Assembly (NCBI GenBank): GCA_035079385.1
Contig: JAVHKY010000028.1
Coordinates: 8,370,001-8,434,000 of the forward strand
DNA: 64,000 nt
From: Aspidiotus rigidus
Lineage: Eukaryota; Arthropoda; Insecta; Hemiptera; Diaspididae
Reading direction: 5' to 3'
Shown here: positions 10,600-54,497 of the stretch, one piece after another
Numbering within the stretch: the stretch's first letter is position 1
How the letters are laid out: every line of letters starts with the position of its first letter
The notes under the pieces: model-generated
What the model saw: the letters and a program-made list of their open reading frames with translations, nothing else
Databases searched by the model: none
Told to the model about the DNA's origin: nothing
Made by a program: the position numbers and the translations under genes

Positions 10600-11183
10600 A
10601 TCGCCGTGTAGAACGTGAAATTGTTCACAAATGTTAAAATGATTTTCCTCGCAAAATATTCTCGAAATACGTAAAGGATAAACAGCGGGATACTTTTTAG
10701 AACGTGTAAGACCGTAGACATTTACAGAACATTTATTTATTTTTTCAAAATAATCAATTTCTTTGAACAAAACAGGCCCTTCGAGATTCATACCTTTAAA
10801 AGTGATCTTACCCTCATCGTCAAGTTTTTTCATCAACTCTCTGGTATAACGCGTTTCTTGTTCTTCATGAGGTATAGTATTGGGAAGAAATTTACACATA
10901 ATAGAGTAAAAGAAGCATCTGTTATCATCGTTTTTTATATTTACAACAGCTTTCCGGTCTTCTATAGGTTTTGGTAATGGAATATAAGAAGTAGCTGATA
11001 AAGGAACGAAAGGATTCAATTGTAACTCCAAATCTAATACTTTTTCTATTGCCCAGTTCGAACCTTCCAATTGCGCCTCTCCAAAACGAGTTTCTAAATT
11101 CTCAATTTCCCTACTAAGCCAATCATTCAAATTAGTCGTTTTGTAGATTTCAGAACACTGAGAACGTAGACCAAACTCGGAAT
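10600..11183 (-). pseudogene. OTU-like / viral PolB-type N-terminal region, 3' fragment of a broken gene
   Basis: The minus-strand frame contains the string SYIPLPKPI, then NIKNDDNRCFFYSI and later CSVNVYGL. This combination is familiar from a widespread arthropod family of uncharacterised virus- or transposon-derived proteins whose N-terminal region precedes a polymerase-like part. The N-D-x-x-C-F motif resembles an OTU-type Cys site, which is inference. The frame is continuous with the part at 18043-18179 once the intervening hAT and one copy of its duplicated GTAAAATC are removed. The C-terminal remainder is missing beyond about 10600. Confidence 0.5.
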
Positions 11184-11746
11184 GTAAAATCCAGAGATGA
11201 TAAGCCGAAGCCGTTGATCGGCTTAGCAGCAGCAGCAGCCGAGTTTTGATCGGCTTTTTCAGCTAGCCAATAGCTAGCCAATCAAATCACAATCAGCCAA
11301 AAGCTAGCCAATAGCCAATGTACAAGAGCTACTTTTTCAAAAAATCAATTTTTTTTGTTTTCAACGGCTGGTTGTTATATCAGAATGAAGCATGCAGAAG
11401 CATGAGATCATGAGATGGTGTATGTAATGTATTCGAGTAATTTACTTTTTCGCATAACTGGTATTCTTGTTCATGAACCGTCGGCGTTTTTGTTGATTGC
11501 ACGACGTGTAGGTTGTCAAAAGAAAGTCCAACGAGACTGTTTGAAAAAATACGAGTCGTGACTCGTCTGTGCTTGTGCCGAAAACAATACAATAGTAGTG
11601 TACTGTAGACAATAGTCAATACCATCCACGAGCTGTACTACGCGGCTGTAGACGAGTTTTGAAATTTGAATTCTTAGTTAGATACCGGTACGGTTCAAGT
11701 GGAATCTTAAATATTTAATTATTTATCCCTTGACTAATGCAGGCTT

Positions 11747-13427
11747 ATGGCTCAAGCTCAAGTTGATACATTATTACGAGTTACACTTCTCATCGACGAA
11801 AACCAGAAACAGTGAGTAACTTAATACAATACTACAATTTATTCTTCGTTGGTACGGTAAATTTAAAATCTGGCAAAGTTTCGATCACAACTATTACCTA
11901 GGCCTACCGTATTATTTGCGGTATTTTTTCAACTGATATTGTGATCTGGTACAGGATGATCGACTATTGCGACGAATCGGGGCTTCATTTCAAAGTTAGC
12001 AGCGTGAAAGCGCACCGAAAATTTGATTTCTTGTTCATTTTGGAAACTGAAGATAACCTGGAACTGGAGGAATTGTTTGGCCTGAACGAATTCGCTCACG
12101 TTGGGGAAATTGATACTCATCGAATGTTCGATATTCTTGATCGAATATGGGTCATTCTCCCAATAATCCAATATTTCTGTTATATTGCCCTTAAATATTA
12201 AGAAGTAAATATGTAGAACTGAGGAAGGTGTCTATTGAAAGGTGTGAGTTTTCTCTACCAGATAAATCTAAAAAATAGTCGAGAGTATCGAATACTGAGC
12301 GCCCAAAACTCCTCAACGTACAAAATTTTCCAAATTTTCCATCGTCGTCAACGTAATGAGTTTTTTTACTTTTGATAACATGTGTTGGAGTGACATATTT
12401 TCCGGATAAAAAATTCTTTCAATACAGTCTGCGTGAAAGAAAAACTTGAACACAACTATTTGAGAGCGTACTTGAAATTTTGGACACCCCCCTGGTCTGC
12501 AATGGCAACATAAAGAGGGGTAATCACTTTGATTCCTTCGTAGTTGCTCAATTTTAGTAAGGCTCACTGTGAGAGATATTTGATACATCAGAGGTTGGCA
12601 ACATTCATTTTGGATTGTCAGGACGATAGCATTTACAATCTATCTCGATAATTGAGTTTTCAAAATTCCCAGTTGCCACAAACCACTCTTGTTTAAAGGA
12701 AACTGCAATTTCCGTACTCTAAACTTTCCTTCGTCCGTACTCTAAACTTTCCTTCGTCGACAACGCCGATACTTGTCATGTATAAATATCACGAAGGCCG
12801 AGAAGAAACACAGTCGTACAAGCAAACTGCCTGATTATATTGCCATACCTCTTTTAATGTTTGGGGTACTACAGACGCGCCATGATCGGTACTTTCCAAA
12901 TATTTTCTATCGTCGACAACACGATTTTTTTTCCTTCGTCGTTGCTGATCCGTTTTAGCAACAAACAACGAAGGAACTGTGATAAACAACGAAGGAATAA
13001 AGGAGGAGAAGAGACGTTTGTGGCATGGAATGAATTAGCAGAATGACGTTTGACGATGATTTTCAGAGTCCCTATGTCCTGAAAAAGAAGAGAGGGTTTG
13101 ATTAACAGCTTATCATACGTTCTTATCACGTCATCTACAAAAGTTCCTTCGTCGTCAACAAAATTTCCTTCGTTGTTTACAAACTGTGTACTCCGTCCCG
13201 TGTGGGGGTAATGGGAGATACCTAAACCTCATGTATAGTTTTAGGTACGTATTATGTTGAATATTCAAAAAAAAAAAGTTCAAAAAATTCAATTTCAAAA
13301 TGCAAAAAAATGAGATAGAAATATTGGATTATTGGGAGAATGACCCATATATGTTCTACTAACGGCGAATTGGAAAGATTGGACGATCAATTGGCAAAAT
13401 TGGACGATCGACCAACGAAGTGTTTAA
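11747..13427 (+). CDS. Small two-exon accessory gene of the hAT element, interrupted by a MITE
   Basis: Exon 1 is 11747-11811 (ATG, then a GTGAGT donor). Exon 2 starts at 11955 after GTACAG and reads on in frame. The product is small (about 100-130 aa), acidic and without a recognised domain; it contains the string HVGEIDTHRMFDILDRI. A 1.2 kb MITE at 12148-13347 enters the reading frame. Beyond it the same frame continues from 13350 to a stop at 13425-13427. In the present sequence the frame instead stops inside the MITE at 12199-12201. Function is unknown. Its place between the element end and the transposase makes it a candidate second gene of this hAT. Confidence 0.4.
12148..13347. mobile_element. 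Non-autonomous TA-inserting element, 1200 bp
   Basis: Terminal inverted repeats of about 30 bp begin TGGGTCATTCTCCCAATAAT at 12148, with the exact complement ending at 13347. TA flanks both sides (12146-12147 and 13348-13349). The interior has no transposase. It is full of the motif TTCCTTCGTCG in both orientations (near 12530, 12725, 12750, 12930, 12966, 12985, 13141 and 13168). It interrupts the accessory gene of the surrounding hAT. Confidence 0.85.
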
Positions 13428-13607
13428 GCAATCATAGTAATCAAGTATACGGTACCTACGCATGGTGTATTGCATCGGCGCAACAAAAGTTAACGATCAG
13501 GTAAAGCACGTGTGCAAAAGCGAATGGAATTTCGTACTTTTTCTTCCTATCTCTTCCATTTCATTTTATCCTTTGACCGATACAAATTTCGTGTCTGCCT
13601 GTTAGTA

Positions 13608-16364
13608 ATGCCTGCCTCTAGGAATAAGATTGTACGAAAGTACTTTGAATACAAAAAGTCTGAGAACAAAAGCATTTGTAAAGTGAACGTTGTTGGAGAA
13701 GGTGTTGCAGAAAGAGAAGAAAACCAATGTGGAATTGTACTTAAGGTATGAATGTTGAACTATCCAGACGCAGGTTATTTACTGAACTTGAGTTTACATT
13801 TCTCCGTGTTTTTTGATTTATAATCTTTCAGGATACTAAAGTGAGCAATCTGAGGTCTCACCTTCAAGCGCGTCATAAATCAACGTACGATTTATTGCTG
13901 GCAGAAGAGAAACGAAACTCGGAGCCCATCAAGAAGCAGACGTTGTTGTTGACTTACTCCGATTCTATAAGTTTACAAGTTTCTCGTGTAGAAGTTATCA
14001 GAGGGTTACTTGCGTTAGTAACTGTAGATGGTAGACCATTCAGTGCTTTGCAAGATGAGGGATTCACAATCGCCTTCAAACCCATTCTTCAACGATTGAA
14101 ATTATCTTTCCATCGCTTAAACATCTCCACACTAATTCAATTGGCTGCCGAATACATCAAGTGGAAAATCCGTGAAGTTCTAAAGGATACTTTAGTTTCA
14201 GCAAAAGTTGATGCAGTCAGTAGATTTAGTAGATCGTTTTTAGGCATCAACATTCAGGTAAACTGACAATTCTTCGGTACCTACCTACTGTTTGAAACTA
14301 TATAAATATTTATTTATGGAGATGTACTACTCAAGTGCGGTATTGTTATAAATTTTTCATAGGCAATTATCGATCACCAAATTGAACTCTTTGTATTGGG
14401 TGTCCAAGAAATAAAGTTCGAGCATTCAGGGGCGAACATGAAGATTCTTCTTAACGACTGCCTTGCAAAGTACAACATTTTTCCCAAGCAGTTGTATTCG
14501 GTTACTACCGATAATGGTTCCAATATGATAAAAATGACCGAGCTAGTAGATGCACACTATCGAAACCTTCGTTACCAGAACATTCCTGAGATTAATTTAA
14601 ACGATGAAGACGAACTTACACAATTTGTAGAATGTATTTGCGGTGATGATTGGGCGGATGACGAAATAATTTGTAAGTCAGGAGAACTTTTCTTGTTACG
14701 CACTGATTTCCTGATTTTGTTCTCTTTCTCATTTCATTTTTTCAATTTTTTTGTATTTTTAGGTACTTTGTTCAGTTTTCTTTATTGATTATTGTTTTAG
14801 GTGTGAATTGCATAGCTCATACACTTCAACTCGCTATCCTCGACTCATTACAAAACGCTTGGGAGGACGAAGGTGTTGAGAATTATGTTATACTAATTAA
14901 ATCAGCGAGAGAATTGGTCAAGAATTTGCGTAAACAAAACAATCTGCTTTTGTTGACGGCGAAAGGGATGTGCCGGCCAACCCTCGATGTAAAAACCCGG
15001 TTTGTATTCCAACTTCCTAAAAAAAATCCTAGTCATCAGTACTGTTAAACGAATTAATTTGTAATAATTACTAATATTGGTAATTGAATATTACTATCGT
15101 TATTATATATCTACTATCTCCTATAGATGGGGTTCAACATACAAAATGCTCCATGATTTATTTAAGATGAAGGAAGTATGCGCGGAGGCGGTTGACCATG
15201 GTAACAGAGAATTGTTTTTGCCAGATGATACCTGGAAAGGTATTGAAGAGATAGTACAGACGTTGAAGCCATCGTATATAGCAACTAAAGAACTACAAGA
15301 AGAAAATTTGACCCTACCCAATGCGCGCAAAGTAATTGAAGTATGCTGGATGGAAACATCTGAACTAGGTGAAGGCATAGAATAATAAAATCAAAAGTTT
15401 TTCTTCTACACTCGTTCAAGTGGTGTCAAATATCTAATGGTTTCTCTTGTGTGGATGTTATGTTCCAACAGGAACCCCCCTGTCTCAAGAACTCGTGTAC
15501 AACTTCGAAAAACGGCGAGAACAAATTATGAATGGACATGCTATGCATAATGCTATCTTTCTGGACCCGCGGCACCTATTTCAATTGAGCGAGAGTGAAC
15601 GTGTTGAGACCAAAAAACGTTTAATCGCGCTTCATTCGCGTCTATCAAGTTATAGAAAATAGAAATACTTACCTACATCTACTTCCTTGATTCCCCTTCA
15701 AATTTCCAAATAATACCTCCCTGTCCATTATAACTTGATCCCTGGCAAGAGAGAGAATGTCATGGAAATTTTATTCGTTTTCCATGATAATTTGTATCTT
15801 GCTATCTCTCTCCGCCAGGGGATCAACTTATAATGGACAGACTGTATCTTATTCAATTTGTAATATTTTTAGAACTTCAACTCGAAGAGGCACAAGAAAA
15901 CCCTATGTGTCAACAGTCTGAAAATTCTGATTTCGAAAACTTGGGTGATTATAGTGACGAAGACGAACTTATGTATGAAAGAAGTAAGGGCGGAAAAATT
16001 TAAAAATGCAGCACAGAAGAAAATTTCTCGTCCCGTATCCAAATTCGAAAACGAATTATTGGCTTTTGAAAAACAGTACATATCCCATAGACTGGAAAGT
16101 AGAAGTTCGGTTCTAAATTTCTGGAAAGAAAACATGTCACCTTTCCCAAATCTTCATCGGGTTGCGCTAATAGTACTTGCTGGAGCAGGTACACAAGTGT
16201 CTGTTGAACGGTTATTCTCTCAATTGAAGTTCATTCTGAATGACCAACGCAGTAATTTATCCTCTGAGAATGTGGAGAATATTTTGCTAGTTCGTGGAAA
16301 CTTTCAATACCTTGATGATAAATTCTTCAGAAAAGTAATTCAGGATAAGATCCTGAACATCTAA
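13608..16364 (+). CDS. hAT transposase with BED-type zinc finger (frameshift in last exon)
   Basis: Seven exons fit: 13608-13745, 13832-14257, 14363-14672, 14801-14999, 15127-15368, 15472-15639 and 15873-16364. The first two exons together hold a BED-like finger (SNLRSHLQARH at the exon 2 start). The RNase-H-like core has SVTTDNGSNM and CIAHTLQLAI. The last exon ends with the hAT C-terminal dimerisation domain (GTQVSVERLFS). Near 15970 the frame of exon 7 shifts, so the protein is broken between the acidic linker and the C-terminal domain. The related gene at 61408-64000 has the same intron phases except that it lacks the intron at 14258-14362. Role: cut-and-paste transposition; this copy is probably inactive. 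Confidence 0.85.
15721..15840. repeat. 120-bp palindromic insert in transposase intron 6
   Basis: The left arm starts CTGTCCATTATAACTTGATC and the right arm ends as its near complement (GATCAACTTATAATGGACAG). The block lies wholly within the intron 15640-15872. Size and shape fit a very small foldback MITE. No clear target duplication could be fixed. Confidence 0.7.
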
Positions 16365-17062
16365 TGAATGATTCTGTTGCCCGTATACCTACTTACTATA
16401 CTTACTATCTTCAATTCTAATCTTTATTGTGTTAGCATTATAAAACGATACCTAGTTTTGATGAAAAATACTGATTAGGTAACTATTTGTTTTCCTCTTT
16501 TTTATTATTTTCTAATTTTACTGTGTGATCATTAATTTTTTAAAACTTCATGACGTACTTACTCAATTTAAGGTTGCCTTTATTCGTTAGGCCTACAGGT
16601 CTTCGTTTTGGTAACTTTTTTCTCCTCAATATTATTTTATCAGTCAAAATATTATTAAAAATTGTTTTCGAGGAATTTCACATTATTTTTATTCTTGAAC
16701 GAGACTATCTCTGTAGTTAGGACGGGTAAAATGTAGCGTGAATCAATGTAAATATTTTTATTCCATTTTTCATTTTCTTTTTTTTCTTCTCTGTTGACGA
16801 GTCAGAAGAACAGAATAACGAACGCATTATTTTCGAAACCAGCGGGCAACATTCTTCTGGGATCAAGCAAAATTTCTATTGATTTTCAGGTGTAGATGAC
16901 AGGAAATCAGAATTTTAGATTCATTCCGTTGGGTTGCTCACAAAGTGAGTATTTTGATTAGCTTCATCGAAAGGAGTTGAGAAGGTAGAACAGAAAGAAT
17001 CGAGATTTTTTTAAAGCATTTGTATGAACAATAATTTATATACATGAACTTTTCTATTAATA

Positions 17063-17449
17063 TTAATCGTAGTGGATACCCCTTATACGTTCCGGTGGCT
17101 CGCTTTGTGAATTGTAGTAATGAGAAGCCAAATCCTGTGATTTCAAATCCGGTGTCGTCGGCTCCATTGCTTCTTCATCTTGGACTGTTGATTGTTTTAC
17201 AGGCGTATCAAGTACACTATTTTCATTAGGAGTGCCAAAATAACTTTCTTGAAAAAGTGGAGGGGGTAAATTCGCAATTTTCTGGAGGAAATACGTACAA
17301 AATTGATTCCAATGGGCGACTCTTTCCTCAAGAAATTCAATCCTCTTGTGCAACTTTTCGTTCTCTTTAGTCAAATTTCATCGTATTGTTTGCGCAATCG
17401 ACGGAACTTCATTCTAACGCCCTGACAATAGTTACACGTCGGACTCATA
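17063..17449 (-). pseudogene. Coiled-coil accessory gene of the hAT element, one frameshift
   Basis: A minus-strand ATG at 17447-17449 opens a frame with a CNYC motif and a basic stretch. Near 17375 a one-base shift moves into the longer frame, which starts with a heptad-like coiled coil (KLHKRIEFLEERV) and ends in an acidic Pro/Thr/Ser tail. Total length would be about 128 aa. No family is recognised; a Cys pair followed by a coiled coil resembles a truncated THAP- or C4-finger protein, which is speculation. It lies antisense between the transposase and the right end of the hAT. Confidence 0.4.
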
Positions 17450-18042
17450 GTTAAGTACCTTTATAAAAACTAGTGAAGGAAATTTTTTGAGAAGAGAAAT
17501 CTCAACATACTTGCTCCAGAAAAAATTATCGAGGGCCATACTAGCTGATAATAGACAAATTTCCTCTGATGTCATATAGTTGATAACAATTGGCCAAAGT
17601 ATTTGTTTTGGTGTTTACAAGCCTCTGAATTTCGTGAACTCTCATAAGATACCTCTAAACCCTCGATTTATATATTGTTTTTCCAAGCCAAGACTGACTA
17701 CTCTCTCCTTTGTGCGATTGCCAGTCTGCTACAGACCATTGCAGAGCTCAGAAATTGTTTTAAAACACATAATATTTTTCATTTTTTGTTTTTATCAATC
17801 TGAAATTGATTTTTCAGTAGTTACAGGCTTGTTTTTGAATTCTACGATGAATTCTATAGTTAATCAACACGTCACTTGCAGAATTATCCCAATCTAGCCA
17901 ATAGCCAATCATTAAGAAGCCAATGAAATTATGAAAAGCCGATGAAAAAGTTTTAGCCAATCCTGAGATAAATTTTCAAAAATTGGAAGCTAATAGCCAA
18001 TCACTAGCCAATCACGAATGGCTTATCATCTCTGGTAAAATC

Positions 18043-18179
18043 ACTCCATCGGCGCTCTCTTTACGTAATAGAATGTTTATAGATAAATTAACTTTTAGCG
18101 CGGTGTGTATATCCAAACCCGCTACAAGTCGAGCTGAAATACCTTCTCTATAAAAATTAATAAAGTCGGAAATACCGTA
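18043..18179 (-). pseudogene. Middle fragment of the broken C2H2/OTU-like viral gene
   Basis: Minus-strand coding with the string ARLVAGLDIHTALKVNLSI, matching the position of a beta-rich segment in the same arthropod protein family as 10600-11183. It is bounded by the hAT duplication on one side and a pogo deletion derivative on the other. Relative to the fragment at 19305 the frame is shifted by one base. Confidence 0.45.
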
Positions 18180-19302: not shown

Positions 19303-19610
19303 TATGGTATCCGCCGGATTAAGATCTCGAACTTGAGAAGTCGTTTGGAGTGGAATTAATTGAGGCGGAGGTCTTTGTTGCGCGCTGTGTCTCTTACTGG
19401 AAAATTTTCTCACTGAATTAATGTACTCATCTAAGCTCGGAAATACGATCAATGTGTGTCGAACATCTCGACTCTGGCGGAAAACCATACCAAATTTCCG
19501 ATGATCGGAAATTGATTTATTGTACAGCTGAACAGCTTTCTTATGTTTGAATGATCGAATGTGCAAATGAAACATTCGCTCGGCATAATCTCCGTCGCAA
19601 ACGTTACAGG

Positions 19611-19852: not shown

Positions 19853-19940
19853 TCAACCATTAGTGTTATTGTCTTTTTTTTTTTTCTTTTTTTCTTCGTG
19901 TTTTGAAAGAAAAGTTCGTCGATTTCCCTGTTAAGTAATA

Positions 19941-44375: not shown

Positions 44376-44403
44376 GTAAGTACAATCTTTTCTCGTCATA
44401 ATC

Positions 44404-45079: not shown

Positions 45080-45100
45080 TAGTAGGAAAGGACGTCTGGC

Positions 45101-45214: not shown

Positions 45215-45261
45215 GAATGTAACTCCATTTTTTAAGGGCCCTGGAACGGGGCGGTTTTAAA

Positions 45262-47041
45262 TTAAGGAATGTGTTGTACAAACTGGATGAGTTTATCTAC
45301 ATCATTCCTGTAAGAAAGCCATAAAGCATTGTGGTGTGCTGTGTAATGTATATTTTTCAGTATTTCATTTCGTACTTTCGTCTCATACTCTAGGTTAAAT
45401 TTTACTTGAGGCATTCGCCACACAATATCTTTTAAAGTTAAATTTATTAAATGATCGTTTCCTAAAGAAGTCACAAAACAATTACTATTGTTCCCTGTAT
45501 TCCTGAAGAAGACCAATTTCTGTGGCATACGAAATAGAAAACGTTTGTAATCCTCAAAAAATCCCATCACTATTGAGAGAGGTATACTTTGAGAAAAATA
45601 TCCACTCTTGTTTATCATGAGATTACCTGGAGAACTAATGTTCCATCCTGCATTATTGTAGGGTGACTGCGCCAGTTTGCAACGCGTTAAGAGAATTTTC
45701 CACTCCAACTTCCCATCAGAAATTCGGTATTCATGCAAATGTGATGAACGATACATATTTAGAATCTGTATGACGTAATTTTTCAAAAACATTGATAAGA
45801 AAAACATTCTAATGCATTGAATGTTCTAAATTTTGTAAATAAGTCGAAAAAATGCAAGTGTACCAGTTTGCAACGCAAGTTCACCAGTTTGAAACACTCC
45901 TGACACCAGTTTGCAACGCTTTCTATAAACAATGCTTTAACACCAATTAGGGTACGAAAACAGTTCGTTTCATGAAGGTGAACAGTTAGTGTCATACCTC
46001 TTATCAGTCAGTAGCCTAAATGGAATTTTTCACTCGTGTAATGAACCAATAAAAAATAATTTTTCATTAATTTAATCATTGATGATGTATAAGAGAAGTC
46101 AATATTTTCTCAACAAAACTGTAGAATATAGCCTATAAAAAAGAAATGAATACCTAGGTACTTTTAGCTAGCCATCAGCTTAATAGACTAAAACAGTGAT
46201 AGGGTGATAAAATGTGTGCGTTGCAAACTGGAGCACACTTGATCACCAGTTTGCAACGAAGTGTTGCAAACTGGTGAAGTACTGCTCTGTATGGAATGTT
46301 TGCAATGTATCCAAATAAAATAAAATTATTCTCCTTTTTTCGGTCAAACGTTATTATTTATTTGAAGTTGGATACCTTACTTACCATTATGACAAAGGAA
46401 TATATAATCCAACGTTAAATAATCCATCTAAAATCTCATTTCTTCACCAAGCTTTCCGAAATTATCTAGTTATTTTTTCATGGGATACGGCATACTGAAC
46501 TTTGAAACGTTGAAGTGATAACAAAAACCACAGATAATACCGTGAGGGTAGGTTCACGTTAAAACGGATACATTGAATTTTTTTTTTTTTTTTTTTTGCT
46601 TTTATTCCACAGCTACTCATTCTCTTATTTTTTAAGAATCTTTACAAAATGATGCAAACTGGTGGTGCGTTGCAAACTGGCGCAGTCACCCTACTTCAAG
46701 TCATTTTCAAAGCAAACAAGCCCTTTCATTGTTGTTGAAATACCTGGTTTACGAATCGAGTCTATTTTGTTGTCGCCTATGTAATAATCAATACGGTCGA
46801 ATAGATGTAGAAGCCCATTTGTGACAAAGTTAAATACATTCACATCTTGCGGAATCTCTACATGCGCTCCTGTTTTTTTAATCTCAATTTGGCCTCTAAG
46901 CACAAGTAAACTTTTACTCGGTTGAGTTACAATATCCTCGTTATACGCTGTAATTGGAAATTCTGTTCCAGGAGTGTCAAATTTTTCAGACATGGGTGGT
47001 CTGTAATCGTAAAATTCAATGCTCTCAATAACATTCTCCAT
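45262..47041 (-). pseudogene. Capsid-like (double jelly-roll type) gene, interrupted by a MITE
   Basis: The N-terminal part is 46694-47041 and the rest 45262-45658. Between them a pogo MITE entered at a TA; the frame on the two sides is the same when one TA copy is counted. The N-terminal part starts MENVIESIEFYDYRPP and has an aromatic/Asp region (LFDRIDYYIGDNK). The later part contains NLTLKDIVWRMPQVKF, a pattern I associate with the major capsid protein family of arthropod Polinton/adinto-like elements. Only about 247 aa are present, much shorter than a full double jelly-roll capsid, so the C-terminal half is missing or lies elsewhere. Assignment is by resemblance and gene order next to an A32-like ATPase. 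Confidence 0.45.
45661..46691 (-). mobile_element. Pogo-family MITE of 1031 bp in the capsid-like gene
   Basis: Perfect ends GGGTGACTGCGCCAGTTTGC and complement, TA on both sides (45659-45660 and 46692-46693). It shares CCAGTTTGCAACG with the pogo element at 23434 and has at least six internal copies in both directions (45862-45921 and 46219-46280). No coding capacity. It was probably mobilised by a transposase of the 23434 type. Confidence 0.9.
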
Positions 47042-47072
47042 TTTTAAGTTACTTTCTTCATATCTCGCTCGG

Positions 47073-47080
47073 TATTTATA
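47073..47080 (-). promoter_or_regulatory. TATA box of the capsid-like gene, overlapping the previous stop codon
   Basis: On the minus strand GTATAAATA overlaps the final Val codon and TAA stop of the 93-aa gene. It lies about 39 bases ahead of the capsid-like ATG. Confidence 0.6.
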
Positions 47081-47357
47081 CTTTTTCTGAAGGGAATTCT
47101 ATCTTGGCGTAAGAGAACTCTGTATTACCTTTACACTGCTCCATACCTTTGAAACAAAAATACTTCTTGTCTTTCAAAAAATCGTCATCAAAGTGTTTCT
47201 TCGCAAACCATTGAGGTAAGTTAAGTCGTATCGGACCCTCCAAGTCAATTGTGATAGTTTGTTGTCCAAATTTGTTGTAATATTTGAAGTGATTGGTAAT
47301 TGTATAAACAACACCAACTTGTAAATCTGCAAACTTCACATATGTTACTTCAGCCAT
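47076..47357 (-). CDS. Small 93-aa protein, possible ssDNA-binding (OB-like)
   Basis: The frame starts MAEVTYVKFADLQVG and has alternating hydrophobic/charged strands (YTITNHFKYY, QQTITIDLEG), a pattern compatible with a small beta-barrel. A protein of this size between the ATPase and capsid genes would fit an ssDNA-binding or scaffolding factor of a protein-primed replication system. I do not recognise a named family. Gaps are 15 bases to the ATPase and 34 to the capsid-like gene. Confidence 0.4.
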   Translation of the reverse strand: MAEVTYVKFADLQVGVVYTITNHFKYYNKFGQQTITIDLEGPIRLNLPQWFAKKHFDDDFLKDKKYFCFKGMEQCKGNTEFSYAKIEFPSEKV

Positions 47358-47372
47358 GATGCAAATGATACT

Positions 47373-48071
47373 CTATGAAGGTAACTGAGCTTCCTTATAT
47401 ACTAATTTGAACTCGAAATTCTTCTTGAATGTATAATCATCTAGATCAATAGTGATGAAACTGAATTTTTCACGCCAACAGTAATCACACATTTTCTTGA
47501 AAGTAGCAAAGTCTGTGAAACCACTAATGTATTCATAATACACTTGTCTCAGATTCACACCATCCAGTTTGAAGAGTATTAAGAAATTCATATTTCCTCT
47601 AATTCCCGATTTTTTAGGTATTTTTGTATAACTCTGTGTCAAATAGAAACAGGAAATACTACGATGACGCCCTCTTAAGAAGTAGTTTGCAATTGGATCT
47701 TGGTCTTCTGTTAATATATCGTCAAATATTATAGTTGAATTAATTTCTATTTTTTCAGGTGGCGGTAAATTGTCAATATCTGTAATCACATGATAACCAA
47801 TCTTTTTCTTACTTTTATTATGACCCTCCACCAATTCCTCCAACAGTTTGTACTTGGCTTGATCAGCAGTCTTACAACAAAGGTAAATGTTAGTTAGCGG
47901 TTTTTTGTGTAGCAGTATTGTCAACACTACATTAGTTTTCCCAGCTCCACTACTCCCTGCTATAACAGCACGCATTACATTAGGAAACATGGGAACTTTA
48001 CATTTTTCTGGTGGTTTTGTGTCTAAATTAAGTACAGGAATACTTGTTTTCAGTTTTGTTGCAAATTCCAT
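47373..48071 (-). CDS. A32-like DNA-packaging ATPase
   Basis: 232 aa, intact. Walker A GSSGAGKT at residues 39-46, Walker B IIFDD at 114-118, and a polar sensor-like region with YLTQSYTKIP. Length and order of motifs fit the FtsK/HerA-type packaging ATPases of Polinton, adinto- and poxvirus relatives, which power DNA entry into the capsid. It starts 27 bases after the polymerase stop. Its TATA box is formed by the last polymerase codons. It belongs with the polymerase and capsid-like genes as a virus-type module. Confidence 0.75.
   Translation of the reverse strand: MEFATKLKTSIPVLNLDTKPPEKCKVPMFPNVMRAVIAGSSGAGKTNVVLTILLHKKPLTNIYLCCKTADQAKYKLLEELVEGHNKSKKKIGYHVITDIDNLPPPEKIEINSTIIFDDILTEDQDPIANYFLRGRHRSISCFYLTQSYTKIPKKSGIRGNMNFLILFKLDGVNLRQVYYEYISGFTDFATFKKMCDYCWREKFSFITIDLDDYTFKKNFEFKLVYKEAQLPS
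47393..47401 (-). promoter_or_regulatory. TATA box of the 93-aa gene, within the ATPase 3' end
   Basis: TATATAAGG on the minus strand encodes the Val-Tyr-Lys codons near the ATPase C terminus. It ends about 36 bases from the next ATG at 47357. Confidence 0.55.
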
Positions 48072-48098
48072 TGTTGTTGTTGTGGTTAGATTGCCACT

Positions 48099-48107
48099 CT
48101 ATTTATA
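48099..48107 (-). promoter_or_regulatory. TATA box of the ATPase gene, formed by the PolB stop region
   Basis: TATAAATAG on the minus strand reads as the last two polymerase codons and the TAG stop. The ATPase ATG (48071) lies about 36 bases from its upstream edge. Confidence 0.65.
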
Positions 48108-51100
48108 GTATCCCCAAGGTAGTGTGTCGTGATTTGTCTGAATAGCACGTTTGTCAAACTTGAATGAAAAAGTCTTAGTCACATCTTTGTTCACCAAGTT
48201 CTTTGTATTTTTGTCGCGTACTATTTGTCTGTCTGTGACTAAGACTTTATGTACATTTCCGTCAATTATATCCTCCATCGCCTTACTCGAGAGCTTCTCA
48301 ATATTCTGGTGGTGTAATGTGAATCCTTTAATTTTGGTGCACTCTTTATTTGTATTTGTCTTGTAATAGTATGATTTAGGTCCAGTGCACAACCATTTGT
48401 TAATGTACACTCCCGGTCCAAGTTCATCAGTCCACTCACCCAACGAGTCACCAATGTTCACTCTTTCTGTCCCATCTGATTCATAAACAATAGAATCTGT
48501 ATCGCAGTAGATAACTTTCTGGTCTAAAGTACTCATCTGTCTGTATAAACGTAAACGCGCGTTTGCTGTAGTGAAAGCGGCAACATATAGATTAGTGTTG
48601 TAAGAAGTCTCTACAAACTCTTCCTTTGACTTGTAGTTCATCTGGACCATTTCTTCTGTTAGGAAAAGAGTACTGGATACTTCCAGTTTATCATCAAGTA
48701 GTAGATTGTAGAATGTTGAACAGTCACTCACATACTGTGTCTTAGTCATATTTTGTCGCATTGCAAACCGTCCCCACAGGTTATTCAAACAGTTTTTTGC
48801 AATTGTCCGTCGTCCTGAATTAGGTTCAATTTTTCCCAAGTCCAAGTCAATACCCAGTTTTTCTTTAATGTCTTTAGCATACTCTTCTTTACTAGCAAAC
48901 GAGTGTGGACTACTTTCCAATTTTATTTTCAAAAAGTTCTTAATATAATCTTTCCACAAGTCGTAAGTACGTTCAAAGTGCCACACTTCATAGATTTTTT
49001 CTACTTGGTAACCCTGTATCATAGCTTCGTGTACTTCAACGGTCGTCCATGTACCAACAAATGATCTTTCATCATCCGAGTGAGTATATCTAGTTTGTGT
49101 TGATGCTGCGCACTTTACACACAATGGGAAGACTAACTTTTCATAATTGTCAATTTTAACTTTAACTGGAAGAACTGGCAAGTACAAGTCACGCGGTGGA
49201 AGAATTTTACATTTTATGAAACCAAACCATTCAAGATCATATGCCCTTGGTTTGTAAATTTTCTCTGCATGTCCCAATGGGTATGCGTCATAGTACATAA
49301 CACTCGGATAGAGTGACACAACGTCGATGTACTTTATGTTGCCCTCTGCTTTCAATTTGAAACATTCAGTTCTACCACCAAAGAATGCATCACGAGGATT
49401 CAACGCTTCAATAATTTCAGGGTTTTTATATATTTTGTACAACTGTGATTTCTTCCATTGACAAGAGTAAATTTCAACAAGTTCATACCCGGCACCCTTA
49501 ATTGCAGCTGATCTATTAACTGTAGCTTGGTGTAAATCAGCCATTTTTGTTTTATTCACCGGGTTCACACTGTCAGCTTCAAAGCAGGTTGGACAACCAT
49601 GGAAAAAGCATCCTTGGTACTGATAGACTGTATTTGTTGTCTGGTCAAAACCATCAACCCGTTCACCAAGAATTGTAACTTCACGTCCATTCAAAGCGTG
49701 TCTTATGTTTGAGTCTTCAAATGAGTTCAACCAACCAATACTCTCTTTAGAGTACTCGTCTTTGGGTGTTTCATTAATAACGGCTATCGCGTCTGTGGGT
49801 AAAAATTGACTACGGTAGGTGCTTAAACAGACTGAAGCAATGGTGATGTATTGTAGAGGATCAATGTTAGCAATGTCCAAGAAGTCTTGTCGGAAAGTCA
49901 TCATTCCTCGTCGCAACAGATCCACATCAGAGTGACAATATGAGAGTCGTTCTTCTTTCAAATTAAAAATATGATTATCAGCGACACGTTCCTGGTGCCA
50001 TTTCATAAATGCTGCACGTTGGTCTGGTTTCATTGTATTGTAGCCATAAAATTGTTTGTCTGGTATAGGTCCAACATAATCAGCATTCGCGGTAGTATTG
50101 AAGAAATGCGGGAAGTATCCTTTCTTCAGTTTTTTGAGACCAAATGTTTTTGGGAATGAAGAGAGCGGAGCAGGGACAAAGTTATGACTGTCGATAATTC
50201 TCAATTTCAGTTCTTTTATTTCCATGTACATTATTTTTGTACCGTTGTTAATAACAATTGGTTTGATGGTGTTGTTTATACAGTACTGTAGAATAAATTG
50301 TGTGTCAAACCCCTTGGCATAATGCGCTACACAAGTATATTTGATGTGCCGTTCATTAATCAACCACTTGCAAAATTCATCGTTAGTTTCAAAGTCAAAT
50401 TTAGTACCGTCAAAGTAATGCGCGCATACACAGTTGGGGATATGTGTACCTGTTTCCTGCTCAGTCTCATAGTCAAAGAAGATGTATTTCTCAGTGTATT
50501 GGCAATTTTTAGATACAGGATATGGAAGTTCAATTTGAATTTCAGTTGTTTGTTCGACTGTTTCTTCATTTTCACATTCTATACCCAACATTTTAAATTC
50601 TTCAATGTGTGAGTGGAAGGCTTGACACGATATATTAGACATATTTTTTATTTTCTCGTATGATGAGAGAAATTTAACACAAGTCTCGTGGTTTCCACCT
50701 TTATCGGGGTGTTGACTTAATAATAATTTCTTAAAATTTTTCTTAACTGTTTCTTCAACATTCATATTGTATACCACACAATTGTGAGTTGTCACTGTTG
50801 TAGGTAAACCCAAAGATATTGTAATTATCCGCGGTGGAGCGCAATTTCCACAACCGTACATACATTTCCCACCTTTTTGTTCCACAGGTTGCATATAACA
50901 CTTGTGATGTCTGAGATCGCATATTCTTAAACAATTACGGCATTTACCATAACCACATTTATGATACATTCTATCGTATAGTACACGTTTCACAATCTGA
51001 TTACATCCCTCACACTTCAAGAGAATAGGGCAAACATCTTTCTTGTGATTGTCCATACATTCTTGATTGTACACAAATCGATTACAATCCACACAGTACA

Positions 51101-52886
51101 ACCGTTCTTTGGTCTCAATTGTATGTTTGGGTTGCATACATAGCCTACATGTAGAATTTTTTGGCGGTGAACACTTATGGGGTTTTATTTCATATTTTTG
51201 GTCACATTTGTCGCAGTAATATGATGCACTTAGAAACGCAGCCATACTTGTTATTAAGTCAAAGTGGTTTTTCTGTTTGTACAAATAGATTTTCCAGTCT
51301 GCATTGTTAGCCCCTTTGTACTCGATAGAGTTCATACTCTCGCTTGAGATGACTGTTATTTGTACATTCAGTTTGTCTTCGCAATTTTTCAAGTCCTCAA
51401 AAGTAAATTGGTCAATTCCGTTGTGTCCAATTAATTGGCATAATTTTTTAGTCAATGTGTCCTGAGCCTTTCGACCATCGCGAATACTTTTTATTTGTCT
51501 GTGAGTATATTTCTGTCCAAAAAGTGTATCTGTGTGATATGTCAGTCCAACTATCACCGCACGGCCACCACACAAGTTGTCAGAGTTACTTATCTGTCGA
51601 ACACATTTTTTGGTGTGTTTAGCATCTTTCAAGTTCAAGATTCGCGTTCCCTTTCCGCCTTTAGGTATGTGAGCCACATCTACTTGAAATATACATTCTG
51701 TGAAGACTACAGTCTGGTCACTCGTCAATATTTGAATTATTTTTCTAATCAGGTGTTCCACTATACCAGTATTGTTGCAGTATCCTGTAGAAATTTCCTG
51801 ATGAAACTTTTCATTTTTCACGGTGATACATAGTTTATCTTTGCGTGAAAACCCAGTCTTATGTTGTACAAAGTCTATCAGTTTGTGCAGAGCATGAGTT
51901 ACCAAGTCTTCCATACTCATTGCAGGCAGAACACGCTTCATTGTAATCTTAAAATTAAACTCTTCTATGTTGAACTTCAAAATTTTTTGCGAGCTTAATT
52001 TCTGGACATTAATAAATTTTAATTTCAACTTATCTTTTCCCTGTTCAAAGATATCTTTATGAAACTTGAAGACCATACCACCACCGATGATACAATCATT
52101 AGAAAAGATACTCGAGTCAAAAGGGAAGATATCGTCACAGTTTTTTCTGTTCTTCATTTTAGCAAAGAATTTCTCAGTCTTGTCATTTTCCTTCAACAAC
52201 TGGATCATCGCAAGTTTGGTAAAGTCAAAATATTTTCTAAGTCCTCGTTGCTTGGCCAAGTCTTTCAGTTCTTTGAGAGTCATAGTTTCATAGTTAGTGG
52301 TAGAAAAAAGGGCCCCGGAACAGGGCCCTTCCAGAAGAGCAATCAGTTCAGCTTTCCTAAGTGTGGAATATTTTTCAAGTCCACGCTCTTTAGCCAGCTC
52401 TTTTAATTTTTTCACAGTCAGTTTCATAAGGTCACAATTGGTGGTTTCAGAGACACAATCAGTGGTTTTAATGTCATCATTCAAGAGGGCTATCAATTGA
52501 GCTTTCCTAAGTGTGGAATATTTTCTAAGTCCACGCTCTTTAGCCAGCTCTTTTAATTTTTTTACAGTCATTTTCGTGAGGTCACAATCGGTGGTTTCAT
52601 TATTTACAGCTAGTGGGTAAAAATTTTCTATGATTAAATTAAATACTCTATTTACATCCTCGCTAATATCACACTCGTTCTCTTGGATTTCCCACTCAAT
52701 AACACCAAGGGAACGAACGTGGTTGCGAAGTTCATTAAGAGGCATATTAAACAAAGCTAAATCTAAATTTTCTGTTTTTGTATTTTTTTTGGAGTTAGTA
52801 TTATTTACAAGTGTGTTAGTATTTACAGGTAGTTGGTCTTGAGAAAGACCGTTTTCAAAATCGCAGTCAACAATAGGCATATCCAT
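48099..52886 (-). CDS. Protein-primed family B DNA polymerase with SAP-like repeats and J-domain-like motif, intact
   Basis: 1595 aa in one frame. Residues 100-235 hold three SAP/Rho-N-like repeats (KKLKELAKERGL...LIALL). A region near 430-540 with NLCGGRAVIVG and KNHFDLI may be OTU-like. Residues 555-680 are rich in C-x2-C pairs. An HPDKGG motif with helix-like flanks lies at 726-731. 3'-5' exonuclease motifs: FFDYETE near 803, YAKGFDTQF near 855 and YCHSDVDLL near 980. Polymerase motifs: DVVSLYPSVMY near 1188, KNCLNNLWGRF near 1364 and YCDTDS near 1459. This matches polymerases of Polinton/adinto-like elements, which copy a linear genome with a protein primer. The SAP repeats are also duplicated at DNA level. 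The start is the first ATG after a TATA box at 52968; a second ATG follows two codons later. Confidence 0.88.
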   Translation of the reverse strand: MDMPIVDCDFENGLSQDQLPVNTNTLVNNTNSKKNTKTENLDLALFNMPLNELRNHVRSLGVIEWEIQENECDISEDVNRVFNLIIENFYPLAVNNETTDCDLTKMTVKKLKELAKERGLRKYSTLRKAQLIALLNDDIKTTDCVSETTNCDLMKLTVKKLKELAKERGLEKYSTLRKAELIALLEGPCSGALFSTTNYETMTLKELKDLAKQRGLRKYFDFTKLAMIQLLKENDKTEKFFAKMKNRKNCDDIFPFDSSIFSNDCIIGGGMVFKFHKDIFEQGKDKLKLKFINVQKLSSQKILKFNIEEFNFKITMKRVLPAMSMEDLVTHALHKLIDFVQHKTGFSRKDKLCITVKNEKFHQEISTGYCNNTGIVEHLIRKIIQILTSDQTVVFTECIFQVDVAHIPKGGKGTRILNLKDAKHTKKCVRQISNSDNLCGGRAVIVGLTYHTDTLFGQKYTHRQIKSIRDGRKAQDTLTKKLCQLIGHNGIDQFTFEDLKNCEDKLNVQITVISSESMNSIEYKGANNADWKIYLYKQKNHFDLITSMAAFLSASYYCDKCDQKYEIKPHKCSPPKNSTCRLCMQPKHTIETKERLYCVDCNRFVYNQECMDNHKKDVCPILLKCEGCNQIVKRVLYDRMYHKCGYGKCRNCLRICDLRHHKCYMQPVEQKGGKCMYGCGNCAPPRIITISLGLPTTVTTHNCVVYNMNVEETVKKNFKKLLLSQHPDKGGNHETCVKFLSSYEKIKNMSNISCQAFHSHIEEFKMLGIECENEETVEQTTEIQIELPYPVSKNCQYTEKYIFFDYETEQETGTHIPNCVCAHYFDGTKFDFETNDEFCKWLINERHIKYTCVAHYAKGFDTQFILQYCINNTIKPIVINNGTKIMYMEIKELKLRIIDSHNFVPAPLSSFPKTFGLKKLKKGYFPHFFNTTANADYVGPIPDKQFYGYNTMKPDQRAAFMKWHQERVADNHIFNLKEERLSYCHSDVDLLRRGMMTFRQDFLDIANIDPLQYITIASVCLSTYRSQFLPTDAIAVINETPKDEYSKESIGWLNSFEDSNIRHALNGREVTILGERVDGFDQTTNTVYQYQGCFFHGCPTCFEADSVNPVNKTKMADLHQATVNRSAAIKGAGYELVEIYSCQWKKSQLYKIYKNPEIIEALNPRDAFFGGRTECFKLKAEGNIKYIDVVSLYPSVMYYDAYPLGHAEKIYKPRAYDLEWFGFIKCKILPPRDLYLPVLPVKVKIDNYEKLVFPLCVKCAASTQTRYTHSDDERSFVGTWTTVEVHEAMIQGYQVEKIYEVWHFERTYDLWKDYIKNFLKIKLESSPHSFASKEEYAKDIKEKLGIDLDLGKIEPNSGRRTIAKNCLNNLWGRFAMRQNMTKTQYVSDCSTFYNLLLDDKLEVSSTLFLTEEMVQMNYKSKEEFVETSYNTNLYVAAFTTANARLRLYRQMSTLDQKVIYCDTDSIVYESDGTERVNIGDSLGEWTDELGPGVYINKWLCTGPKSYYYKTNTNKECTKIKGFTLHHQNIEKLSSKAMEDIIDGNVHKVLVTDRQIVRDKNTKNLVNKDVTKTFSFKFDKRAIQTNHDTLPWGYYK
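52316..52600 (-). repeat. Recent 150-bp duplication of the SAP-like repeat
   Basis: Two segments about 150 bases apart share long identical runs such as CTTTCCTAAGTGTGGAATAT and CCACGCTCTTTAGCCAGCTC. The third, diverged copy lies at 52180-52290. The duplication added one DNA-binding repeat to the polymerase N terminus. Confidence 0.85.
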
Positions 52887-52967
52887 AATATCAGTATAAT
52901 AGGAGAGAGAGAGATGTGAACAGGAGAGGAGCCTGAATAGGCAATGACTATTTCTTAGGATGCGATT

Positions 52968-52976
52968 CCTTATATA
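52968..52976 (-). promoter_or_regulatory. TATA box of the PolB gene
   Basis: TATATAAGG on the minus strand about 85 bases ahead of the ATG. It is preceded by CGTC, as is the TATA box of the SAP-repeat gene (53971), so the two may share a promoter type. Confidence 0.5.
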
Positions 52977-53026
52977 GACGTTTTAGGGGTGCAGTGCAAC
53001 CTAAAAATCCATACGCAGTAGCGCTC

Positions 53027-53873
53027 CTAGTGGTGACGCGCGCAACTAAAACGTTGTCTATGTAGAGGTTCAAGAACAGAGTTTATCACGGGTGCTATTT
53101 CCTCAATTTTTCTCTTCATTCTAAGATGGTCTGAAAAATAAAATGATCTGACCGGATCGTCAATAATATTATCCAAAATATTATATTCTTGAATATGATC
53201 GGAAAATGTTACTTTTCTCATATTCGAAAACAACGCATTCGCTACGAAATCGGGATCAAAATTATCATCATCGTCATCTGAGAGGTAATAGATCTTCTTC
53301 TAGTATTTTTTTCTTTTCTTCCAGAGTCATTTTCTTGGGATAATATCTGGAAACAGGCATCGGACGTGTTTTCTTTCGCGAAAACATTTCGTCACACGCA
53401 CTACTATCGCAACCTAAGGGAGATATTTTTTCGAGTTCGAATGGTTTATCTTCGGTTCTTCGAATTTTCATTTTATGACCTAACTTAAACAAAGATTTAG
53501 GCGGAATACATTCGGGTTGTCGTGGTACCTTCACGCGCAGTTTCTCAATAGGACACTCACTTTTTAATTCATTCACTACGAGTATACTGTCACTTGCGAG
53601 AATAGATGAAATCAAATCTTCCTTCTTCAATTTGTAATATTTTTCGATACCGTACGCTCGCGCGATATCTTTCAACGTATTTACAGATTCTAACCCTAAA
53701 TCAAAATTACGAATATCTTTGATGTTACTATTTTCTAAAGCTGAGATTAATTGTGTCTTAGTTAACTTATAATAATATTTAATATTATTTTCACGCGAGA
53801 TTTCGCGAAGTTTATTTACAGTGTAGTTATAAAAACAACTATTCATAATTGATTTCACATAAGCTTGAGCCAT
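53027..53873 (-). pseudogene. SAP-repeat protein of the viral-like block, frameshifted
   Basis: The frame from an ATG at 53871-53873 runs to 53274 and has two SAP/Rho-N-like repeats (VNKLREISRENNIKYYYKL and a second at LKDIARAYGIEKYYKL), then a basic stretch. Near 53285 a one-base shift leads into the other frame, which begins with an Asp-rich segment and ends at 53027. The whole would be about 280 aa. An open frame continues upstream to 54032 but the TATA box near 53975 supports the later start. It resembles the repeats of the polymerase N terminus, so the two proteins may bind the same DNA. Confidence 0.5.
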
Positions 53874-53970
53874 CCTAACGTGGATGATAAGATCTTTTTC
53901 AGAGAGCAAAAAAATTAGATGCGAATAGTTCAATAGCCAAACGGCAACAGAGGTCGGAGCGCTAGTGTAC

Positions 53971-53981
53971 CTATATTTATA
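53971..53981 (-). promoter_or_regulatory. TATA box of the SAP-repeat gene
   Basis: TATAAATATAG on the minus strand, preceded by CGTC, about 100 bases ahead of the chosen ATG. No gene is seen between here and 54266. Confidence 0.5.
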
Positions 53982-54497
53982 GACGAAGCCTTCCAAGCGG
54001 TATTCCAAGCTGACTGTTGTCTTATAGCGCAACTAGCGGTGTAAACCGGAAATGACTAATCGTGCAAGTCAGGACTTGTCTGGACTTACGTACGTACTTA
54101 TGCGTATTTGCGTTTGAACAGTGGATGATTCATAGCGACCTGTTGCGTTCCTATCAGTTTGTTGTTGTGATAGTATATCTTGTTTTACCGCGTAAAAAAA
54201 TCGTACTCCATTCTTAAAGAAAAATATAATACTTATTTCGAATACAATATAGGTGCTAATCTAAATCAGGGCTGCCAAGTTGGGCGATTTATTGCAAATT
54301 GGGCGACATAAAATCCGATTTTGCGACTAAAAAATTGAATTTGCGACTTGTCCCAAATTGGGCTACTTGGACTGAGTCTTGTCGTAAATTGGGCTACTTG
54401 AAGAATTTTCAACCGAAATAAAATTTCTTTCTTCTCTCATGTTGTCGTCATGTAATTTATCAGTAATAACTAACTTTTCTATTGATCCGACTGCAGT

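What the first reader, a model, noticed from the sequence alone, without database searches (positions are those of the whole stretch)
10600..54000. A virus-like element of about 12 kb can be reassembled from pieces separated by six main insertions
With the precisely bounded insertions at 11192, 18180, 19611, 23434, 29156 and 45661 removed, about 12 kb remains. Its order is C2H2/OTU-like gene, membrane protein, acidic protein, zinc-finger protein, capsid-like gene, 93-aa protein, packaging ATPase, PolB and SAP-repeat protein. Frames are continuous at the hAT and MITE sites. PolB plus A32-like ATPase plus capsid-like gene is the core set of Polinton/adinto-like viruses, but no integrase or protease is seen. 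That several accessory genes belong to the same element is inference.
Basis: partly seen in the sequence, partly recalled or inferred. Interest (0 to 1): 0.88.

Follow-up and report, generated by a model that had tools for sequence, protein, structure and literature searches.

The report
Two nested Polinton viruses, not one
An insect chromosome carries a young, partly deleted copy of a virus-like giant transposon (Polinton/Maverick) that landed in the remains of an older relative, so the pieces read as one 12-kb virus come from two elements of a known kind.

Summary
The pieces and nearly all insertion borders are real, but they are not one element. The window lies in a 441-Mb genome that holds 11 near-full-length PolB genes at 98-100% identity (window's included) plus one broken copy. 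Three copies measured end to end are 17.5-18.0 kb, with inverted terminal repeats and 6-bp duplications. Scanned in copy C66: A32-like ATPase, a whole double-jelly-roll capsid gene, rve integrase, PLA2-like and BRO-N proteins. These are marks of a Polinton/Maverick.

The window's copy begins at 45078. It keeps the outer 130 bp of the left repeat, lacks about 6.6 kb (integrase, BRO-N, PLA2, capsid C-terminus), resumes at 45351, carries a 1-kb MITE and stops at 54236 at a 14.8-kb interruption. It ends 8.5 kb beyond the window, at C28:8442551, with the same duplication TGTACT on both sides.

The acidic and zinc-finger genes lie outside this copy. They belong to an older, diverged relative whose zinc-finger gene the young copy entered. 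The C2H2/OTU gene is probably the front of that relative's own PolB; this last step is inference on weak scores.

The parts
45078..54236 (-). Young Polinton copy, part inside the window (PolB on minus strand); its right part lies outside the window at C28:8439037-8442551
   Evidence: Terminal repeat start at 45078 and homology to copies C66, C15, C16, C56 over 45351-45660, 46692-48098 and 52983-54236; same 6-bp TSD TGTACT left (45072-45077) and right (L042)
45078..45206 (+). Outer 130 bp of the left inverted terminal repeat
   Evidence: 100% over 130 bp to the left terminus of copy C66, exact 24-bp terminus at 45078
45207..45350 (.). Scar of an internal deletion of about 6.6 kb (integrase, BRO-N, PLA2 and other genes, capsid C-terminus); origin of these 144 bp unknown
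   Evidence: C66 620197-626816 has no counterpart here; no match of these 144 bp to the C66 pieces at E<=1e-5
45351..45660 (-). Middle part of the double-jelly-roll capsid gene
   Evidence: PF21738 1.6e-11, profile positions 52-132 of 316; 100% to copy C66 over 310 bp
45661..46691 (.). MITE with TIRs shared with the pogo-like transposon at 23434-28455, inside the capsid gene; absent from the four other copies compared
   Evidence: Inverted repeats, TA duplication, homology gap
46692..47041 (-). N-terminal part of the capsid gene (first Met at 47041)
   Evidence: Homology to the 419-aa ORF of C66, which matches PF21738 positions 5-313 of 316, 1.1e-51; this piece alone has no Pfam match
47076..47357 (-). 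93-aa protein of unknown function
   Evidence: ORF; no Pfam, NCBIfam or PHROG match; fold model unusable, pLDDT 42
47373..48071 (-). A32-like packaging ATPase
   Evidence: Pox_A32 8.3e-5, 22.6 bits against cut-off 22.8; 26% over 117 aa, E 7e-6, to an A32-like ORF directly downstream of PolB in L004
48099..52886 (-). Protein-primed type PolB with N-terminal Rho_N/SAP repeats and vOTU-like region; open frame, exonuclease and polymerase motifs present
   Evidence: PF03175 5.6e-49; motif positions; 800 relatives at E<=0.001 among 4613 candidates for residues 700-1600; tree of 62 rows
53027..53221 (-). Small ORF resembling a stretch of a relative's PolB N-terminus
   Evidence: 15 aa at 67% to P0037, E 0.26 and 0.008 by database size: weak
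53274..53873 (-). Rho_N/SAP-like ORF; its N-terminus resembles the N-terminus of PolB itself in relatives P0004 and P0008
   Evidence: Rho_N 1.2e-14; 44% over 108 aa to P0004, 38% over 105 aa to P0008; same place in C66, 305-aa ORF with Rho_N 2.1e-14
54237..64000 (.). Window part of a 14.8-kb stretch that separates the two parts of the young copy; holds a hAT-like element at about 54503-56767 and a hAT transposase ORF 58004-59989
   Evidence: 54503-56767 read by eye, no exact TSD found
44376..45077 (+). Zinc-finger gene (ORF from 44404) of the older relic, cut by the young copy at 45077/45078
   Evidence: 77% and 91% nt identity to the zf gene of C66 over 44375-44906; protein 65% over 84 aa and 86% over 94 aa
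29087..29143 (+). Stretch upstream of the older relic's zf gene, separated from it by the LTR element at 29156-44375
   Evidence: 81% over 58 aligned columns to the stretch upstream of zf in C66
28698..29057 (+). Acidic protein of the older relic (first Met at 28815; similarity begins upstream of it)
   Evidence: 45% over 116 aa, E 3e-18, to stretches directly upstream of zf in copies C15 and C16
22444..22960 (+). Possible membrane protein with GT-AG gaps; membership in the relic not shown
   Evidence: Read by eye; best match to the three element loci tried (L030, L032, L042) E 0.05
19305..19610 (-). C2H2/OTU gene, piece 1 (by eye a start codon lies at about 21842, across the copia-like remnant)
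   Evidence: P0121 residues 2-72 at 56%
18043..18179 (-). C2H2/OTU gene, piece 2
   Evidence: P0121 residues 86-132 at 66%
10630..11191 (-). C2H2/OTU gene, piece 3; similarity ends at 10630
   Evidence: P0121 residues 131-317 at 61%, E 7e-80; P0121 goes on to residue 364
11192..18034 (.). hAT element
   Evidence: 8-bp TSD GTAAAATC, TIR CAGAGATGATAA
18180..19302 (.). MITE
   Evidence: TA duplication, TIR GCACGGGGTAAT; frames differ by one across it
19611..21830 (.). copia-like remnant with LTRs
   Evidence: LTR pair 228 of 235 aligned bases alike, gaps apart; TSD ACAGG; RVT_2 4.6e-4, under its cut-off
23434..28455 (.). pogo/Tc5-type transposon
   Evidence: DDE_1 3.2e-20 and HTH_Tnp_Tc5 1.6e-6; TA
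29156..44375 (.). 15-kb LTR element with Ty3-like pol at 40432-44220
   Evidence: LTR pair 109 of 117 aligned bases alike, gaps apart; TSD about GTAAG; RT, RNase H, integrase domains

Best explanation
Two Polinton/Maverick-type elements lie nested here. An older, diverged one left its PolB-upstream side in the window (probably the N-terminal part of its PolB, then acidic and zinc-finger genes); five later transposons hit it. A young copy of another family, about 18 kb when complete, inserted into the old zinc-finger gene at 45077/45078 with a 6-bp duplication. That young copy later lost about 6.6 kb inside, gained a MITE in its capsid gene and was interrupted by a 14.8-kb stretch, so its PolB and ATPase frames are open while capsid and integrase genes are cut or gone. 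How it works: by homology the full family copies its linear genome by protein-primed PolB, packages it with the A32-like ATPase in a double-jelly-roll capsid and integrates with an rve integrase, which makes the 6-bp duplication. Shown here: termini, duplications, gene content of one copy, copy number, nesting. Inferred: replication, packaging and integration, and that the OTU piece is the relic's PolB front.
For:: 11 near-full-length PolB loci at 98-100% (8 of 11 without stop codons) plus one broken one; the four other copies fetched are 99.5-99.95% alike pairwise over 6.4-6.5 kb downstream of PolB and share 45351-45660, 46692-48098 and 52983-54236 with the window; inverted terminal repeats (538 bp, 100% in C66) and 6-bp duplications in 3 of 3 copies whose both ends were fetched, and TGTACT on both sides of the window's copy. 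(copy C66): capsid profile 1.1e-51, rve 2.3e-8, PLA2-like 7.8e-12, BRO-N 6.9e-25; zf and acidic genes of the window are diverged relatives of genes upstream of PolB in full copies, in the same order; a zf gene starts 2.2-2.4 kb from the upstream side of PolB in 9 of 10 other near-full-length copies; one 991-bp stretch of the right part (L042) is 99.7-99.8% like C15 and C56.
Against: The right part of the young copy (L042) is 97-98% like C66 in its main stretches, less than PolB is in 7 of 10 comparisons (99.3-99.7%; the other three 98.0-98.8%), though the window's own stretch 52983-54192 is also 97-98%. The family is not uniform: the left 1.3-1.4 kb compared in C16 are only 85-86% like C66 and C15. 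The search for the rest of the old zf gene to the right of the young copy (949 bases) found nothing. The C2H2/OTU gene as a PolB front rests on weak scores: blastp 0.002 at best; hhalign E 0.019 with probability 2.5%; profile 10.9 bits for the window piece against 7.9 for the best of 500 shuffles, and P0121 itself was not among the 40 rows printed; a model of pLDDT 48. No OTU-gene copy was located in the genome, because the genome search did not complete.
Confidence: 0.92

Rival explanations
1. One 12-kb element, split by six insertions.
For: The segments abut at insertion borders and sum to 12,390 bp; acidic and zf genes are of the same kind of element.
Against: Terminal repeat at 45078 with a TSD that recurs at the right end; three full copies are 17.5-18.0 kb, and 9 of 10 others have zf on the other side of PolB; zf is only 77-91% alike while PolB is 98.0-99.7%.
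Confidence: 0.02
2. Two elements are nested as described, but the C2H2/OTU and membrane genes belong to neither: a third element or host genes that were neighbours before.
For: No match of P0121 or of the three OTU pieces to the loci L001-L042 at E<=1e-3; the membrane gene looks intron-bearing (by eye).
Against: Order and strand (OTU minus, acidic plus, zf plus) fit PolB minus, acidic plus, zf plus of full copies; the OTU gene aligns co-linearly, though weakly, with PolB N-termini.
Confidence: 0.25
3. The terminal repeat at 45078 and the PolB block come from two different insertions that only lie side by side.
For: 144 bp between them match nothing in the C66 pieces at E<=1e-5; 6.6 kb are missing.
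Against: The TSD TGTACT pairs the 45078 end with the right end in L042, whose element sequence resumes 43 bp (in C66 coordinates) after the point where the window block stops.
Confidence: 0.04

Closest known systems
Insect Mavericks/Polintons of Spodoptera frugiperda cells (Sf-Maverick 1 and 2; PMC5803895, passages seen)
   Same: PolB, A32-like ATPase, rve integrase and a PLA2-domain protein in one element
   Different: Sf integrases carry a chromodomain, not found here by Pfam in the 165-aa C-terminal part; here a BRO-N protein and N-terminal Rho_N/SAP repeats on PolB, neither mentioned in the passages seen; the paper's protease has only a motif-level candidate here
Adintoviruses / Eupolintoviridae (PMC11071296, passages and section 16; PMC8363768, passages)
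   Same: PolB with N-terminal OTU-like region, integrase and double-jelly-roll capsid in a linear element of 13-18 kb; contigs L001 and L002 with PolB relatives at 37-40% also carry an rve ORF (L002 4.2e-10; L001 2.2e-4, under the cut-off)
   Different: The capsid here matches PF21738, which the candidate capsid ORFs of L001 and L002 do not; no chromodomain found
pPolB with vOTU-like D2 domain (PMC11071308, passages and section 9)
   Same: vOTU-region Cys and His found in this PolB (NSDNLC at 466, NHFD at 572)
   Different: Rho_N/SAP repeats are not mentioned in the parts of the paper that I saw

Membership tests
[quoted passage not shown]
   PF03175 5.6e-49; motifs present. Priming itself not testable.
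Polinton/Maverick | rve (retrovirus-like) integrase | tested here: met
   In full copy C66: PF00665 2.3e-8, 34.6 bits against cut-off 32.6 (L031:3-317). Missing from the window's copy, whose internal deletion covers its place; none in 82 further window ORFs.
Polinton/Maverick | FtsK/A32-type packaging ATPase | tested here: met
   Pox_A32 8.3e-5, 22.6 bits, just under the cut-off of 22.8; similar to an ORF of L004 that passes the cut-off with 25 bits
[quoted passage not shown]
   419-aa ORF in C66, PF21738 1.1e-51 over positions 5-313 of 316; cut and interrupted in the window
Polinton/Maverick | Ulp1/adenain-type protease | tested here: inconclusive
   No Pfam match; a 133-aa ORF L031:1004-1405 has only a Q..CG-like motif
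Polinton/Maverick | Minor capsid (penton) protein | not tested
   Several ORFs without Pfam match; no fold compared
Polinton/Maverick | Inverted terminal repeats | tested here: met
   538 bp, 100% in C66; shorter or broken matches in C15 and C16
Polinton/Maverick | 6-bp target-site duplication (hallmark recalled, not from a call) | tested here: met
   TAGTGT, GCCATC, TGAATT in 3 of 3 copies with both ends fetched, TGTACT in the window's copy
Adintovirus (definition in PMC11071296) | Integrase with C-terminal chromodomain | tested here: not met
   No match at all in the 165-aa C-terminal ORF part at E<=10, though HMMER's filters drop most above 0.1; the ORF was scanned in two parts, in one copy
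Adintovirus (definition in PMC11071296) | Hexon recognisable by BLASTp from adintovirus hexons | not tested
   No reference hexon was available; window capsid pieces gave no tblastn match to L001-L004 at E<=1e-3
Adintovirus (definition in PMC11071296) | PolB with N-terminal OTU-like domain | tested here: inconclusive
   Cys and His motifs in place; no fold

The most novel reading that the evidence does not exclude
The neighbourhood is a trap for this kind of element: 8 of about 35 places with the zinc-finger gene in the 441-Mb genome (67 rows, grouped by me) fall in 197 kb of C28 (8,364,115-8,561,396), and the young copy sits inside an older relative. The locus could be a small-RNA-producing cluster that keeps a record of Polinton invasions, or a site that these elements prefer.
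Probability: 0.25. Interest if true: 0.6.

Novelty: new member of a known kind. Interest (0 to 1): 0.35.

Why it matters
It turns a doubtful mosaic into an ordered series of events and shows a recently multiplied Polinton family in one insect genome: over 4584 PolB positions compared, the window differs from 9 of the 10 other near-full-length loci by 12-18 mismatches and from the tenth by 55, gaps apart. It also warns that taking out insertions and reading the rest as one virus can fuse two elements; terminal repeats and target-site duplications should be checked first.

Tried and rejected
Rejected: (1) one reassembled element, see rivals. (2) An integrase-less new virus type: full copy C66 has an rve ORF. 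(3) OTU gene as a part of the 51%-identical PolB family: no match in the eight loci of it that were held, L017-L024, with 1.5-kb flanks. (4) Terminal repeats within the window between left gaps and the right side: only 12-14 bp matches; the true right end is outside.
Led nowhere: five scans of viral contigs gave no relative; PDB by sequence none; phage collection only remote PolB; protein search with the zinc-finger gene found nothing, although the genome has many copies; fold models too poor to use, so no fold search was run. The uniform-placement estimate for the six insertion sites (0.0026) was made after seeing the data and is explained by the left part being an older element.
Full report
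What the window is. The window is C28:8370001-8434000 of a 441-Mb assembly in 102 contigs. It is an insect by inference: among the PolB relatives that bear a name, those nearest in a tree of 62 rows are from the scale insect Parthenolecanium corni, with beetles, a psyllid and aphids further off. No species name was obtained.

The observation. The minus-strand block SAP/Rho_N, small ORF, PolB, ATPase, 93-aa ORF and capsid pieces is real. ATPase, 93-aa ORF and capsid start 15-34 bp after the previous stop (coordinates), a compact viral layout. PolB is one open frame of 1627 codons from stop to stop, with exonuclease motifs at 835, 887 and 1015, polymerase motifs at 1220, 1400 and 1494, and the vOTU-like Cys and His region at 466 and 572. 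The insertions have target-site duplications and terminal repeats as listed under parts. Frames continue at two of the three tested sites; the 18180 MITE site is off by one.

Why it is not one element. Search of the genome with PolB gave 30 matches, the first look naming 497 candidates of which 29 were scored. Eleven are near full length at 98-100% identity (8 of 11 without stops), two more rows are parts of one broken copy, and 17 belong to a family at 50-53%. Flanks of four of the ten other near-full-length copies were fetched. Downstream of PolB the four are 99.5-99.95% alike over the 6.4-6.5 kb compared; upstream they match in several pieces, mostly 99% with some at 94-98%. The window matches them downstream only over 46692-48098 (99.86%) and 45351-45660 (100%), with the MITE between, and upstream over 52983-54236 (97-98% over the main stretch). 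With further stretches of three copies, both ends were found: inverted terminal repeats (538 bp, 100% in C66; shorter or broken matches in C15 and C16), termini beginning AGTAGTAGG, and 6-bp duplications TAGTGT, GCCATC and TGAATT. Lengths are 17,979, 17,676 and 17,541 bp. The copies are not uniform: near the left end C16 is only 85-86% like C66 and C15 over 1.3-1.4 kb.

In the window the exact terminus begins at 45078 and 130 bp of repeat follow at 100%. The next element sequence is at 45351, so 6,620 bp of the C66 arrangement are missing between. On the right the window's element stops at 54236. A stretch fetched beyond the window (L042) resumes the element 14.8 kb further on, 43 bp later in C66 coordinates, and ends with the right terminus at C28:8442551, followed by TGTACT, the same six bases that precede 45078. 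The paired duplication is what one expects if both ends come from one insertion event. L042 is 97-98% like C66 in its main stretches, and 99.7-99.8% like C15 and C56 over 991 bp.

Gene content of a full copy (C66, read piece by piece, ORF lengths from stop to stop). From the left: repeat; BRO-N protein (6.9e-25, with DUF3627); an ORF with rve (2.3e-8), scanned in two parts because a fetch border cuts it; ORFs of 120 and 133 aa; PLA2-like 289 aa (7.8e-12); 259, 257 and 168 aa; capsid 419 aa (PF21738 1.1e-51 over positions 5-313 of 316); 93-aa ORF; ATPase; PolB; a 305-aa Rho_N ORF; then on the other strand acidic, zinc-finger and a 301-aa ORF; repeat. The protease is uncertain. The window's copy keeps about 57% of the capsid ORF length.

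The left genes. The acidic ORF is 45% identical over 116 aa to stretches directly upstream of the zinc-finger gene in copies C15 and C16. The zinc-finger gene (44404 on) is 77% and 91% identical in DNA to that of C66 and 65% and 86% in protein. In 9 of the 10 other near-full-length copies such a gene starts 2.2-2.4 kb upstream of PolB and ends within 3 kb of it; in the tenth the nearest is 15 kb away. So both genes are Polinton genes, but of an older, diverged element, left of the young copy's end, and the young copy cut its zinc-finger gene at 45077/45078. The remainder of that gene was not found in the 949 bases held to the right of the young copy. The C2H2/OTU gene is one gene split by a MITE and the hAT: P0121, its only relative among 62 length-limited candidates, aligns to its three pieces in order, and similarity ends at 10630. 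It looks like the front of a PolB: a C2H2 finger near the N-terminus (the pattern search returned 9 of 120 relatives, of which I count 7 as N-terminal fingers), an N.DN.C...HF[DN] layout like the vOTU region, blastp E 0.002 to P0011 and a co-linear alignment to P0114 at E 0.25, hhalign E 0.019 with probability 2.5%, and a window piece at 10.9 bits against 7.9 for the best of 500 shuffles in a profile search (P0121 itself is not among the 40 rows printed there). These scores are weak; the place and strand in the gene order are the better argument. The membrane gene is unassigned.

Relatives elsewhere. Four contigs binned in bacterial MAGs encode PolB relatives at 34-40%. L004 has an A32-like ATPase directly downstream of PolB, as here; L002 carries a clear rve ORF and L001 a weaker one. 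So the PolB-ATPase pair recurs in another contig, and an integrase is found among the kin.

Mechanism. By homology to Polintons: protein-primed replication, packaging by the ATPase in a double-jelly-roll capsid, integration by the rve integrase. Direct support here is limited to termini, 6-bp duplications, near-identical dispersed copies and gene content. Over 4584 PolB positions (the first 300 bases of the frame left out) the window differs from the other ten loci by 12-18 mismatches in nine comparisons and by 55 in one, gaps apart; identities with gaps are 99.3-99.7% in seven and 98.0-98.8% in three. So the spread is recent; no rate was applied. Nonsynonymous differences outnumber synonymous ones in 7 of 10 comparisons (7-11 against 4-5), tie in one (9 and 9) and are fewer in two (8 against 10, 20 against 35). 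All comparisons share the window as one side, so they are not independent, and they do not show purifying selection.

Known or new. PLA2-domain proteins, A32-like ATPase and rve integrase in insect Mavericks are in print (PMC5803895, passages). The adintovirus definition was read in PMC11071296 (section 16); the chromodomain was not found here, so I file the element under Polinton/Maverick and not under adintoviruses. In the listings of nine searches I saw no paper on this element in scale insects or mealybugs; most subscription papers are not in that library.

Noticed in passing
C28:8364115-8561396 (window included): 8 of about 35 zinc-finger gene places of the genome lie in these 197 kb (67 rows, grouped by me): a cluster of Polinton genes and relics.
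   Followed up: partly
C62, C72, C54, C52, C20 and others: A second PolB family at 50-53% identity, 17 rows, 14 of them without stop codons in the match, open frames listed as 1183-2038 aa; two lie tail to tail on C52 at 5703722-5714808.
   Followed up: no
L041 against L039 and L040: Near its left end copy C16 is only 85-86% like C66 and C15, while downstream of PolB it is 99.5-99.7% like them: a mosaic copy, perhaps by recombination within the family.
   Followed up: no
29156-44375: The 15-kb LTR element has LTRs of only about 120-130 bp; besides Ty3-like pol it holds an 844-aa ORF with a Transposase_21 match under its cut-off (3.4e-4), perhaps a nested CACTA-type element.
   Followed up: no
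59945-60753: Tandem repeat of about 100 bp, inner copies 99-100% alike, beside a hAT transposase ORF 58004-59989.
   Followed up: no
L002:7189-7725: The adintovirus-like contig L002 encodes a TATA-binding protein (TBP 1.5e-27) close to its rve ORF.
   Followed up: no
53274-53873: The N-terminus of this stand-alone Rho_N ORF resembles the PolB N-terminus of relatives P0004 and P0008, while this PolB has its own Rho_N repeats: shuffling of N-terminal modules.
   Followed up: partly
44404-44928 and L001:303-1805: 32 aa of the zinc-finger protein resemble the N-terminus of the 500-aa ORF of L001 at 41%, E 0.016 in a 27-kb database: possibly chance.
   Followed up: no
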